This document shows positions 14,977 to 24,903 of a stretch of DNA of 46,905 nucleotides, piece after piece. Positions within the stretch are counted from its first letter, which is position 1. Every line of letters starts with the position of its first letter. The notes under the pieces are model-generated. The model searched no databases and was not told the origin of the DNA. It worked only from the letters and a program-made list of their open reading frames with translations. The translations under genes were made by a program, and so were the position numbers. The DNA comes from Opitutia bacterium (lineage in GTDB: Bacteria > Verrucomicrobiota > Verrucomicrobiia > Opitutales > Opitutaceae): the NCBI GenBank assembly GCA_016217595.1, contig JACRHS010000012.1, forward strand, positions 1-46,905, in the 5' to 3' direction.

Positions 14977-14996
14977 AATTTGGTAGAAATTGGCAG
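14977..14996 (+). promoter_or_regulatory. Candidate operator: two 10-bp direct repeats
   Basis: Two tandem decamers, AATTTGGTAG and AAATTGGCAG, lie in the lutA/rhaB divergent promoter, 46 bp upstream of the rhaB start. The 14-mer TTGGTAGAAATTGG (14980-14993) differs in only two positions from the sequence found on the minus strand upstream of pduL (24890-24877). Tandem repeats one helical turn apart suit a regulator with two DNA-binding units on one face, for example of the AraC type. The regulator itself is not in the window. Confidence 0.5.
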
Positions 14997-15042
14997 GCGG
15001 GGTGTTCACGCTGCGTACTCTCAAACCCAAAACCACCCGACT

Positions 15043-16476
15043 ATGTCCTCAGCGATTTATTCAGCCGCCGTTGATCTCGGCGCGACCAGCGGTCGCGTCA
15101 TTCTTGGAAAGTGGGCGAAAGATCGCCTCACGCTCACCGAAGTGCACCGCTTCCCGAACGCGTTTCGCTCGCTCGGCGCGCACGACTACTGGGACATCGG
15201 CACGCTCTGGCACGAAGTGCAGACGGGGTTGCGCAAGGCCGCCACCGCTTTGCCGAAGGGCGCGAAGATCGCCTCGGTCGGCGTCGACACCTGGGGCGTG
15301 GACTACGTGTTGCTCAACGACGCGGGCCGGCTCGTGTTTCCGTTTCACGCCTATCGCGACAACCGCACGCAAGCCGGGCTGAAACGCCTCGGCGGCACGC
15401 GCGCCGCGCTGGAGCGTATCTACGCGGCGACGGGCATCCCGAATGTTTTCTACAACACATCGCTCCAGCTGGAGGAAGTGGTGGCCAGTTGCCCCGCGGT
15501 CACCGACATCGCAACGCGCTGCCTCTTCCTGCCCGACTACCTGAATTATCTGCTCTCGGGCCGCATGGAAAACGAGCTCACCATCGCCAGCACCTCGCAA
15601 CTCCTCGACGTGCATTCCACGGAATGGTCGCGCGCGGCGCTGGATCATTTTCATATCCCGGCGCAGTGGTTTTCCAAACCGGTGCTCTCCGGTGCGAAGC
15701 TCGGCACTGTGACCAGCATTCCCGAGCTCAAGGGAACGCGCGTCATCGCCGTGCCCGGCCATGACACCGCTTGCGCATATGACGCGATGCCTGCTGCGCC
15801 CGACGGCAGCGATCTCTTCCTCAGCTCCGGCACGTGGTCGCTGGTCGGCTTCGAGAGCGACACGCCGGTGCTCGGCGCCGAGGCGCTGGCCGCGCGCGTG
15901 GCCAACGAGCGCATTGGCGATGGACGCTATCGTCCGCTCACGAATGTCATCGGATTCTGGCTACTGGAAGGCGTGCTGAAGGCGTTTGCCTCACGTCCGA
16001 AAAACGAAGGCGAGTGGGTGAAACTCAATGCCGCCGCGGCCGCGCTGCCCGCGCCGAAAGTATTGCTCGATGTCGCGGACCCGGCGTTTGCCAACCCGCC
16101 CTCAATGCGCGCCGCGATCGATGCGCACCTGCGCAAGCACCGCGGCCAAGCGCCGAAGAATCTCGCCGGCTACGTGCGCCTGATCTGCGACTCGCTGGGG
16201 CGCGGGCACGCCAACGCCAAGGCGGCGTTCGAGCGCATGACCGGGCGGACGTTTAAACGTATTCTCGTCGTGGGCGGCGGCTCGCGCAACCGGCTGATGT
16301 GCCAGGCAACGGCGGACGCGGCGGGCATTCCCGTGGTGTCATTCAGTCTCGAAGGCACCGCGGTGGGCAATCTCGCGCGGCAATTGATCGCGTTGCGGGC
16401 GGTGAAGGATCTCGCGGCGTTCCGCCGGCTGCACGGCGCGCATCTGGAGCAGACCGTCTACCAGCCGCGCGGCTGA
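15043..16476 (+). CDS. rhaB: L-rhamnulokinase
   Basis: 477 residues from the ATG at 15043; upstream in-frame ATG at 14980 lies inside the candidate operator and is unlikely. It belongs to the FGGY sugar-kinase family: the N-terminal phosphate loop AAVDLGATSGRVILGKW, the catalytic-base region PGHDTACAYDAMP, the SSGTWSLVG motif and the C-terminal adenosine motif VVGGGSRNRLMCQATADA are all present. SSGTWSLVGFE is characteristic of rhamnulokinases rather than xylulo- or glycerol kinases. The enzyme phosphorylates L-rhamnulose to L-rhamnulose-1-phosphate, which is the substrate for the microcompartment aldolase at 18.3 kb. L-fuculokinase is a less likely alternative, given the rhaT and rhaA genes elsewhere in the window. 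Confidence 0.92.
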   Translation: MSSAIYSAAVDLGATSGRVILGKWAKDRLTLTEVHRFPNAFRSLGAHDYWDIGTLWHEVQTGLRKAATALPKGAKIASVGVDTWGVDYVLLNDAGRLVFPFHAYRDNRTQAGLKRLGGTRAALERIYAATGIPNVFYNTSLQLEEVVASCPAVTDIATRCLFLPDYLNYLLSGRMENELTIASTSQLLDVHSTEWSRAALDHFHIPAQWFSKPVLSGAKLGTVTSIPELKGTRVIAVPGHDTACAYDAMPAAPDGSDLFLSSGTWSLVGFESDTPVLGAEALAARVANERIGDGRYRPLTNVIGFWLLEGVLKAFASRPKNEGEWVKLNAAAAALPAPKVLLDVADPAFANPPSMRAAIDAHLRKHRGQAPKNLAGYVRLICDSLGRGHANAKAAFERMTGRTFKRILVVGGGSRNRLMCQATADAAGIPVVSFSLEGTAVGNLARQLIALRAVKDLAAFRRLHGAHLEQTVYQPRG

Positions 16477-16565
16477 GCGGACGGAAAATCTGACGCTTGC
16501 GCAACGCATCAGTTTGTCGAACATCCGGCTGGCGACGCGCTCCGCGTTGCCACCAGCACCTTCCC

Positions 16566-16961
16566 ATGTCACGTCTCACCTTCCTTCTTGCCGCGGCTCT
16601 GTTGAGCCTGGGTTTTCTGAGCGGTTGCCAAACGGCGACCGAGCAGCAATTGCGCCTGACCGAGGCCGATCACGGCCGCACGGTTCGCATCAAGAAAGGG
16701 GCGGGACTCGAAGTCGTCATGCCCAGCGATGCCGCCGCCGGTTACACGTGGCAGGTCGCCGACTTGAATCCCTCGTTCATGCGCATCGACGGCACGCCGA
16801 CCTACACACCGGGTGAGACCGCGGGTGCGCCCGGCAAGGCGACCTTCCGTTTGATGTCGGTCAATCGCGGGCAGACCACGCTGCGTTTGGTTTATTTGCA
16901 GCCGGCGGAAAAAGACCGGCCGCCGGAGAAATCGTACGCGGTGATGATTACGATCTACTGA
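16566..16961 (+). CDS. Chagasin-like (I42) protease inhibitor lipoprotein
   Basis: 131 residues from the ATG at 16566. A signal peptide ends in the lipobox LSGC with the lipidated Cys at position 21, so the mature protein should be membrane-anchored. The remainder (about 35-131) resembles the chagasin/I42 family of papain-type cysteine-protease inhibitors: the loop DAAAGYTWQV corresponds to the family's NPTTGYxW loop, and RPPEKSY to the RPW loop, with a Gly-containing middle loop. The loops are degenerate, so inhibitor activity is an inference. It follows rhaB by 89 bp and overlaps the convergent lhgO by 14 bp. Confidence 0.72.
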   Translation: MSRLTFLLAAALLSLGFLSGCQTATEQQLRLTEADHGRTVRIKKGAGLEVVMPSDAAAGYTWQVADLNPSFMRIDGTPTYTPGETAGAPGKATFRLMSVNRGQTTLRLVYLQPAEKDRPPEKSYAVMITIY

Positions 16962-23769: not shown

Positions 23770-24039
23770 TTAGACGCCGAACTGCTTGAGCAGATCAGCG
23801 TGCGGCCGGGCGATGACGTGGGCGCAAACGAGTTCGCCAACGCGTTTGGCGGCTTCGGCGCCGGCTTCGACGGCTGCTTTGACGGAGCCGATGTCGCCTT
23901 TGACGATGATGGTGACGAGACCGCCACCGATTTGGATTTGCTTGGCGATGGTGACGCCCGCCGCCTTGACCATGGCATCGCTGGCTTCAACGGAGCCGAC
24001 GTAGCCTTTGGTTTCGATCATTCCGAGGGATTCATTCAT
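23770..24039 (-). CDS. BMC-H hexameric shell protein, copy 3
   Basis: 89 residues from the ATG at 24039; an in-frame ATG at 24129 overlaps the 3' end of pduL and is rejected. It begins MNESLGMIETKGYVGSVEAS and contains IIVKGDIGSVKAAVEAGAEA. The pore loop is IQIGGGLV, differing from both sister copies. It is the second gene of the operon, 86 bp after pduL. Three BMC-H genes with three different pore loops and no double-domain BMC-T gene are visible in the operon. Confidence 0.95.
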   Translation of the reverse strand: MNESLGMIETKGYVGSVEASDAMVKAAGVTIAKQIQIGGGLVTIIVKGDIGSVKAAVEAGAEAAKRVGELVCAHVIARPHADLLKQFGV

Positions 24040-24125
24040 GGAAGAATGGAGCTGAGGATTGTGGGTTATTGGAAACGTTGCAGGTTGAGAAAAATGAGAT
24101 GCGAGATCGGCGCGCGGCGGGCGCT

Positions 24126-24803
24126 TCATACGATCAGTTCGCAGGGCGTGTCGGGACCGAGTCCGCAGGCGTTGCCTTCGTCGGTGTCGATGTGGACCTC
24201 CAGTTTGAAATCGGGCGAGATGCGCACGAGGACCTTTTCAAAGGTCATGCTGCAAGGTCCACCGATGCGCAGTTTCATGAAGTCGCCATTTTTTACCCCG
24301 TAGAACTGGGCGTCGTCGGGATGCATGTGCACGTGTGGGGCGGCGCGAATCACGCCCTCGGGCAGCTCAAGGAAGCCAGCCGGGCCCATGAGCATGCAGC
24401 CGGGCGAACCTTTGATGTTACCGGAAAGCGCCACGGGAATATCGAACCCGAGCGAGATCGCGTCGGTGTAGGCCAGCTCGATCTGGTTGAAATCGCGACA
24501 GGGGCCGAGAATCCGCAAATTGGATATCACCCGGCTACGCGGTCCGATGAGCGTGACGCTCTCTTGCGCGGCATATTGGCCGTTCTGGTAAAGCCATTTC
24601 ATCGGCCGCAGTTTGTAGCCTTTGCCGAAGAGGGTTTCCACCGCGGCGGGCGAAAGATGGCAATGCCGGGCACTGACGTTGACGACAAGTGGGTTGGGCG
24701 CGCGTACAGCCTTGGGCATCGGGCGTCCGAGGCGCGCATAAAGGAGGCGGCGGACAGCGTGCTCGATTTCAGCACGGTGTGGGGATGGAGGCGCGGGCAG
24801 CAT
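24126..24803 (-). CDS. pduL: Phosphate acyltransferase PduL with encapsulation peptide
   Basis: 225 residues from the ATG at 24803. The first 28 residues contain an amphipathic helix (SPHRAEIEHAVRRLLYARLG, 7-26) suited as an encapsulation peptide. The two PduL domains follow. Metal ligands are visible in VNVSARHCHLS (His47, His49) and PHVHMHPDDA (His157, 159, 161), and a later HID segment at 204. The enzyme swaps CoA for phosphate on the acyl group, regenerating CoA inside the shell and giving acyl-phosphate for AckA. It is the first gene of the operon, and the intergenic region upstream carries three 10-bp direct repeats. Confidence 0.94.
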   Translation of the reverse strand: MLPAPPSPHRAEIEHAVRRLLYARLGRPMPKAVRAPNPLVVNVSARHCHLSPAAVETLFGKGYKLRPMKWLYQNGQYAAQESVTLIGPRSRVISNLRILGPCRDFNQIELAYTDAISLGFDIPVALSGNIKGSPGCMLMGPAGFLELPEGVIRAAPHVHMHPDDAQFYGVKNGDFMKLRIGGPCSMTFEKVLVRISPDFKLEVHIDTDEGNACGLGPDTPCELIV

Positions 24804-24873
24804 GGCGATGGGGCGGAGCGTGGGGGCTTTTAGGGTAAACGCAAGAAAGAAAGTGCCCGCAAAAGAGCTAAAA

Positions 24874-24903
24874 AGACCAATAACTACCAATAACTATCAA
24901 TAA
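24874..24903 (-). promoter_or_regulatory. Candidate operator: three 10-bp direct repeats upstream of pduL
   Basis: Read on the minus strand the units are TTATTGATAG, TTATTGGTAG and TTATTGGTCT, ending 70 bp before the pduL start. The block TTGGTAGTTATTGG is the counterpart of TTGGTAGAAATTGG in the lutA/rhaB promoter (14980-14993). A consensus of W-W-W-TTG-R-Y-AG fits four of the five units in both places. The region is AT-rich against GC-rich surroundings, as expected of a promoter. It lies in the 174-bp gap between the exopolysaccharide and BMC operons. Confidence 0.5.

What the first reader, a model, noticed from the sequence alone, without database searches (positions are those of the whole stretch)
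14977..24903. Same 10-bp direct-repeat motif at the lutA/rhaB promoter and upstream of the BMC operon
Seen directly: AATTTGGTAG+AAATTGGCAG at 14977-14996 and, on the minus strand, TTATTGATAG+TTATTGGTAG+TTATTGGTCT at 24903-24874. The 14-mer TTGGTAG-NN-ATTGG is conserved except for two bases. I did not find it in front of rhaT, rhaA, the lyase or the TonB genes. Inference: one regulator controls lactate oxidation, rhamnulose kinase and the microcompartment together. Units one helical turn apart suggest an AraC-type protein or a cooperative tandem site. The regulator gene is not in the window.
Basis: partly seen in the sequence, partly recalled or inferred. Interest (0 to 1): 0.8.

Follow-up and report, generated by a model that had tools for sequence, protein, structure and literature searches.

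The report
Shared DNA switch for rhamnose genes
The same three-part 10-letter DNA repeat stands in front of a rhamnose/lactate gene pair and in front of a protein-microcompartment operon, and it recurs in front of rhamnose and fucose genes in dozens of related genomes, so it is likely the docking site through which one DeoR-type regulator, not yet found in this genome, would switch the whole pathway together.

Summary
The repeat is real: three 10-bp units at 14967-14996 (+) between divergent lutA and rhaB, and three at 24903-24874 (-), 70 bp before pduL, first gene of a microcompartment (BMC) operon.

Relatives explain it. In 52 of 80 fetched pduL loci a DeoR-family gene lies upstream of pduL on the other strand, and 49 of those 52 promoters hold a 10-bp-spaced pair of the unit (five other spacings: at most 5 of 52). 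A strict pattern run over 252 genomes of the family gave 88 distinct sites: 61 directly precede rhaB/lutA, the BMC operon, rhaA, RhaD, fucP, class II aldolases, Mqo or an alcohol dehydrogenase; 27 precede none of these. Co-regulation is therefore well supported, with a DeoR-type rather than AraC-type reader.

Which protein reads it here is unsolved: the assembly shows no DeoR sensor domain. Where no linked DeoR exists, a paralogous DeoR clade with the same recognition helix is my candidate; it fitted 200 genomes, but a held-out set of 52 gave no support. New member of a known kind.

The parts
14967..14996 (+). Operator at lutA/rhaB: three 10-bp units AAATCGCTAG, AATTTGGTAG, AAATTGGCAG; 46 bp before the rhaB ATG, 58 bp before the lutA ATG
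   Evidence: Sequence; same kind of array at rhaB or lutA/rhaB in 9 other genomes
24874..24903 (-). Operator before the BMC operon: TTATTGATAG, TTATTGGTAG, TTATTGGTCT; 70 bp before the pduL ATG
   Evidence: Sequence; conserved 10-bp-spaced pair in 49 of 52 DeoR-linked and 13 of 27 other pduL promoters
15043..16476 (+). rhaB, rhamnulokinase (FGGY kinase)
   Evidence: PF00370 and PF02782; ATG at 15043
14141..14908 (-). lutA-type protein (CCG domains), likely lactate oxidation
   Evidence: PF02754; ATG at 14908; function from the family name
12743..14134 (-). lutB-type iron-sulphur protein
   Evidence: PF02589, PF11870
24126..24803 (-). pduL, phosphotransacylase, first gene of the BMC operon
   Evidence: PF06130; ATG at 24803
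18257..24039 (-). Rest of the BMC operon: three BMC-domain shell proteins, acetate kinase, aldehyde dehydrogenase, three EutN/CcmL shell proteins, class II aldolase
   Evidence: Pfam

Best explanation
The two repeats are copies of one 10-bp tandem operator that precedes rhamnose and fucose genes in many genomes of the family, and a DeoR-family repressor likely binds it and would let go when rhamnose or an early breakdown product appears. Shown by calls: the arrays, their 10-bp spacing, and the genes they precede here and in relatives. In this genome the effect would be joint control of rhamnulokinase, lactate oxidation (lutAB) and the microcompartment.
For: DeoR gene upstream of pduL on the other strand in 52 of 80 loci: 50 by helix pattern, L020 and L066 by tblastn; directly adjacent except L078, about 1.3 kb away. 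10-bp pair with at most 1 of 12 mismatches in 49 of 52 of these promoters, and in 13 of 27 others; spacings 8, 9, 11, 12, 13 give at most 5 of 52 and 2 of 27. Exact-unit pairs: 34 at 10 bp, 6 at 20 bp, shuffles 0.02 per distance. Family-wide: 61 of 88 distinct sites and 25 of 27 exact ones directly precede rhaB/lutA, pduL, rhaA, RhaD, fucP, class II aldolases, Mqo or an alcohol dehydrogenase. In G249 a BMC-type DeoR faces a class II aldolase with the repeat between them. Published DeoR rhamnose operators: direct repeats of 10-11 bp, one confirmed by gel shift (PMC3870299, passages). PvmA, the DeoR of the Planctopirus BMC cluster, is described as rhamnose-responsive and probably a repressor (PMC11958385, passages).
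Against: No DeoR sensor domain (PF00455) in G000, no match to the BMC-type N-terminus or to the sister clade. Of 27 promoters without the linked DeoR, 14 lack the pair. 27 of 88 sites precede none of the named genes. The lutA/rhaB site is in 2 of 30 rhaB loci of close relatives. No DeoR gene of eight genomes has the motif nearby (30 loci). Nothing here measures binding, ligand or expression.
Confidence: 0.7

Rival explanations
1. A non-DeoR regulator, for example of the AraC family, reads the arrays in genomes without a linked DeoR, this one included; it inherited or shares the operator.
For: G000 has no DeoR sensor domain in the assembly. G245 (L014, repeat-type promoter) has none and G250 (L037) has only a DeoR outside both clades. 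An AraC-type gene (HTH_18) lies about 2.3 kb after rhaB in G005 (L195 13029-13994).
Against: Period is 10 bp, not the 21 bp reported for AraC rhamnose operators (PMC3870299 passages). Where a regulator is linked it is DeoR in 52 of 80 loci. No AraC search over these genomes was run, so absence of AraC genes elsewhere is not claimed.
Confidence: 0.2
2. In genomes without the linked DeoR the arrays are read by the glycosyltransferase-linked DeoR paralogue (sister clade).
For: Sister clade to the BMC-linked DeoRs (100/99), and only these two clades share S-x-S-T-[VI]-R-R in the recognition helix; 0 of the 26 other DeoRs in the tree do (L248 read). G244, G246 and G251 have this as their only DeoR. 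34 of 37 genomes with a named site have it against 52 of 163 without (p 9e-12), reversed-pattern control 11 of 30 (p 0.55), within genera z 2.1.
Against: Held-out 52 genomes: 5 of 8 with sites against 24 of 44 without (p 1); three misses by incompleteness alone has probability 0.08. Its own loci carry no motif. Many genomes have it without sites. Not found in G000, nor the neighbouring glycosyltransferase beyond a 27% partial match.
Confidence: 0.35
3. The similarity of the two places is chance in A+T-rich promoter DNA.
For: The pattern was drawn from the two sites; the reversed pattern also has 3 hits in G000 at up to 2 mismatches; 27 of 88 family-wide sites precede none of the named genes.
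Against: Fixed 10-bp period and position in independent pduL promoters; 25 of 27 exact sites beside pathway genes or class II aldolases.
Confidence: 0.03

Closest known systems
DeoR-family RhaR rhamnose regulons (Chloroflexales, Rhizobiales, Bacillales, Thermotogales; PMC3870299, passages seen)
   Same: Imperfect direct repeats of 10-11 bp at rhamnose genes; several units in tandem (four in the Chloroflexus gel shift); small regulon of a few operons
   Different: Different unit sequence; targets include a BMC operon and lutAB; regulator often unlinked; Verrucomicrobia, Opitutus and Planctomycetes have zero mentions in that paper's main text
PvmA, DeoR regulator of the BMC (pvm) cluster of Planctopirus limnophila (PMC11958385 and PMC4207490, passages seen)
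   Same: DeoR regulator in a rhamnose/fucose BMC locus of the same broad type; rhamnose-responsive promoter
   Different: Operator not given there ('operator' has zero hits in PMC11958385); gene order differs; orthology with the Verrucomicrobial DeoR not tested here
AraC-family rhamnose regulators (RhaS/RhaR type; PMC3870299, passages)
   Same: Direct-repeat operators at rhamnose genes
   Different: 21-bp periodicity reported; here 10 bp, and the linked regulators are DeoR

Membership tests
DeoR-type rhamnose/methylpentose operator | Direct repeats with 10-11-bp period | tested here: met
   34 exact-unit pairs at 10 bp, 2 at 11 bp, next most 11 at 32 bp and 6 at 20 bp, in 79 promoters
DeoR-type rhamnose/methylpentose operator | DeoR gene linked to the operator in relatives | tested here: met
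   52 of 80 pduL loci
DeoR-type rhamnose/methylpentose operator | Target genes of rhamnose/fucose breakdown | tested here: met
   rhaB/lutA 9, pduL 9, RhaD 6, fucP 3, rhaA 2, class II aldolases 27, Mqo 3, alcohol dehydrogenase 2 of 88 distinct sites; 27 none. Only rhaB/lutA, pduL and rhaA were fixed beforehand
DeoR-type rhamnose/methylpentose operator | DeoR gene in the same genome as the window | tested here: inconclusive
   None found, but the assembly is 68% complete
DeoR-type rhamnose/methylpentose operator | Protein-DNA binding and release by a sugar phosphate | not testable with these tools
   Needs gel shift or footprint
PvmA regulon | Orthology of the Verrucomicrobial BMC-linked DeoR with PvmA | not tested
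   PvmA sequence was not fetched; only the shared locus type is known
AraC-type rhamnose operator | Direct repeats with 21-bp period | tested here: not met
   3 exact-unit pairs at 21 bp against 34 at 10 bp

The most novel reading that the evidence does not exclude
Regulator swap with operator retention: the BMC-linked DeoR was lost in part of the family, and its paralogue beside a glycosyltransferase gene took over the same 10-bp operators, turning a local BMC switch into a scattered regulon that ties rhamnose and fucose breakdown, the microcompartment and lactate oxidation together.
Probability: 0.3. Interest if true: 0.6.

Novelty: new member of a known kind. Interest (0 to 1): 0.5.

Why it matters
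Rhamnose/fucose microcompartments are typical of Planctomycetes and Verrucomicrobia, and the passages I saw name their DeoR regulator without giving an operator. A predicted operator with a target list makes the regulon testable and offers a ready inducible promoter module for bacteria with few genetic tools. If true, it ties lactate oxidation, the outlet of lactaldehyde, to the compartment through one switch, and shows an operator set that persists after its regulator gene has left the locus.

Tried and rejected
AraC-type reader as first choice: set behind DeoR on spacing and linkage. Finding an unlinked reader by autoregulation: no motif around the 30 DeoR-HTH loci of eight genomes or the nine paralogue loci. 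General conservation of the lutA/rhaB site: rejected, 2 of 30. The glycosyltransferase-linked paralogue as a proven reader: first 200 genomes suggested it, the held-out 52 did not. Promoter hexamers beside the two operators: none by consensus. Inverted repeat of type C (TATGATCGnnnnnnATCATA) in the window: none. Unclassified sites followed up by Pfam/NCBIfam turned out to precede Mqo, fucP, RhaD, two-domain aldolase and alcohol dehydrogenase genes, so the list of gene names grew after the fact.

Print status: searches of the open PMC library showed no paper giving this operator in the listings or passages I saw; Erbilgin 2014 (PMC3993161) is not held, and RegPrecise was not available, so it may be in print elsewhere.
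Full report
OBSERVATION. The two arrays are as reported. Each has three 10-bp units on one strand: 14967-14996 (+), 46 bp before the ATG of rhaB (15043) and 58 bp before that of lutA (14908, opposite strand); and 24903-24874 (-), 70 bp before the ATG of pduL (24803). The tandem pattern hits nothing else in the window at up to 3 mismatches and nothing else in the 3.59-Mb assembly at up to 2. Because the pattern was taken from the sites, other genomes had to supply the fair test.

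SURROUNDINGS. Pfam scans of 38 window ORFs give rhaB (FGGY kinase), lutA and lutB types, pduL, three BMC-domain and three EutN/CcmL shell proteins, acetate kinase, aldehyde dehydrogenase, class II aldolase, a rhamnogalacturonan-lyase-type protein, RhaT, RhaA and two TonB receptors. No regulator was among them. Upstream of pduL lie polysaccharide genes (O-antigen ligase, sugar transferase, AAA ATPase).

PDUL PROMOTERS. A scan of named genomes kept the best 80 loci of 565 that encode a relative. In 52 a DeoR-family gene lies upstream of pduL on the other strand (50 by helix pattern; L020 and L066 by tblastn), adjacent in all but L078, where it is about 1.3 kb away (for the 50). Exact TGRWAG pairs in the 180 bp before pduL (79 loci; L063 dropped) are spaced by 10 bp 34 times, 20 bp 6 times, 21 bp 3 times, 11 bp 2 times and 32 bp 11 times, with 2, 2 and 1 at 31, 35 and 36; shuffles give 0.02 per distance. 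With at most 1 of 12 mismatches, 49 of 52 DeoR-linked and 13 of 27 other promoters have a 10-bp pair; the misses are L050, L055, L069 and 14 others. By eye there are three types: A, TTGGAAGATT repeats with linked DeoR; B, TGGTAGA repeats, often on the other strand, no linked DeoR; C, an inverted repeat such as TATGATCGAAACAGATCATA, with a different DeoR (30-32% identical) in L005, L009, L031 and L039. The window is of the tandem kind although the PduL proteins nearest to it (L005 to L008, 81-82%) have type C promoters.

LUTA/RHAB PROMOTERS. Of 30 rhaB loci taken from 115 genomes, 13 have divergent lutA/rhaB, and 2 of the 30 have a tandem pair: the window's own and G005's. G053 has it too (L199). 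The site is not general among close relatives.

FAMILY-WIDE SEARCH. TGRTAGWWWTTGGTAGW with up to 1 mismatch was run over 252 genomes; 63 had a match. All listed matches were fetched or already held; overlapping and facing hits were merged to 89 sites, 88 with distinct flanks. 61 lie from 60 bp inside to 420 bp before the start of: a 264-aa-type class II aldolase (25), pduL (9), rhaB or lutA/rhaB (9), bifunctional rhamnulose-1-phosphate aldolase/dehydrogenase (6), malate:quinone-oxidoreductase family (3), fucP (3), two-domain class II aldolase (2), rhaA (2), Zn alcohol dehydrogenase (2). 27 have none; one of these (G190:C380) lies at a contig end. Of 27 exact sites 25 are named. TIGR02632, TIGR00885 and TIGR01320 pass their cut-offs for the RhaD, FucP and Mqo examples; the aldolase of L194 and the alcohol dehydrogenase pass none, so their substrates are unproven. 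Caution: rhaB/lutA, pduL and rhaA (20 sites) were fixed beforehand; the other names were added after genes were seen beside sites. The pattern does not catch the window's own rhaB site (2 mismatches). At genome level 52 of 200 genomes have a site and 30 of 200 a reversed-pattern hit, so a good part of the unnamed sites is noise.

WHICH REGULATOR. For type A position nearly answers it. In G249 a BMC-type DeoR faces a class II aldolase beside panC, with repeats between them (L257); in G066 the aldolase has the repeats but no DeoR beside it (L194). Among genomes with type-B promoters, G244, G246 and G251 have one DeoR each, all of one clade; in the loci read (L155 to L163) that clade mostly lies behind a glycosyltransferase gene; G245 has no DeoR and G250 one outside both clades. 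A tree of 55 DeoRs makes that clade sister to the BMC-linked DeoRs (100/99); only these two share S-x-S-T-[VI]-R-R in the recognition helix (L248). Paralogue presence: 34 of 37 genomes with a named site, 52 of 163 without (p 9e-12); within genera z 2.1; reversed-pattern control 11 of 30, p 0.55. The held-out 52 genomes gave 5 of 8 against 24 of 44 (p 1); incompleteness would give three or more misses with probability 0.08. Pooled: 40 of 45 against 76 of 207. The paralogue stays a candidate, not the answer. In G000 neither protein nor any DeoR sensor domain was found.

MECHANISM. Shown: arrays, period, positions, targets. Inferred: a DeoR oligomer places protomers on one face of the helix and blocks transcription, and a rhamnose-derived ligand releases it. 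Published DeoR rhamnose operators have this architecture, AraC ones a 21-bp period (PMC3870299, passages). PvmA of Planctopirus limnophila is a putative rhamnose-responsive DeoR, probably a repressor (PMC11958385, passages); DeoR genes in these BMC loci were noted in 2014 (PMC4207490, passages). The grouping makes sense as a pathway (recalled): kinase and aldolase yield lactaldehyde, the compartment handles it, LutAB oxidises lactate.

VERDICT.

Noticed in passing
L005, L009, L031, L032, L039, L006-L008, L017, L126-L132, L141, L144 (80-140 bp before pduL): A second operator type before the BMC operon: inverted repeat like TATGATCGAAACAGATCATA; a similar one stands before rhaB in L107 (genome G046, whose pduL promoter L128 has it too), so rhaB and BMC may share an operator in that group as well.
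   Followed up: partly
L311 2517-2543, L348 2529, L350 1934: The tandem operator directly precedes malate:quinone-oxidoreductase-family genes in three genomes; given the pathway these might oxidise lactate, but the lactate-type NCBIfam model is far below its cut-off.
   Followed up: partly
L194 5557-5592, L310 1875-1910, L316 2465-2500, L315 1049-1084: Before class II aldolase genes the arrays often come as a facing pair on opposite strands, unlike the one-strand arrays of the window.
   Followed up: no
pduL promoters of DeoR-linked loci, e.g. L018, L022, L048, L054: A second group of units about 32 bp further towards pduL, with TTGACA-like sequence between the groups, suggesting a two-site arrangement around the promoter.
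   Followed up: partly
window 35976-36620 and 36634-37431 (+): Two adjacent ORFs (214 and 265 aa) downstream of rhaA without a Pfam match.
   Followed up: no
window 24978-29636 (-): A polysaccharide cluster (O-antigen ligase, bacterial sugar transferase, AAA ATPase) abuts the BMC operon.
   Followed up: no
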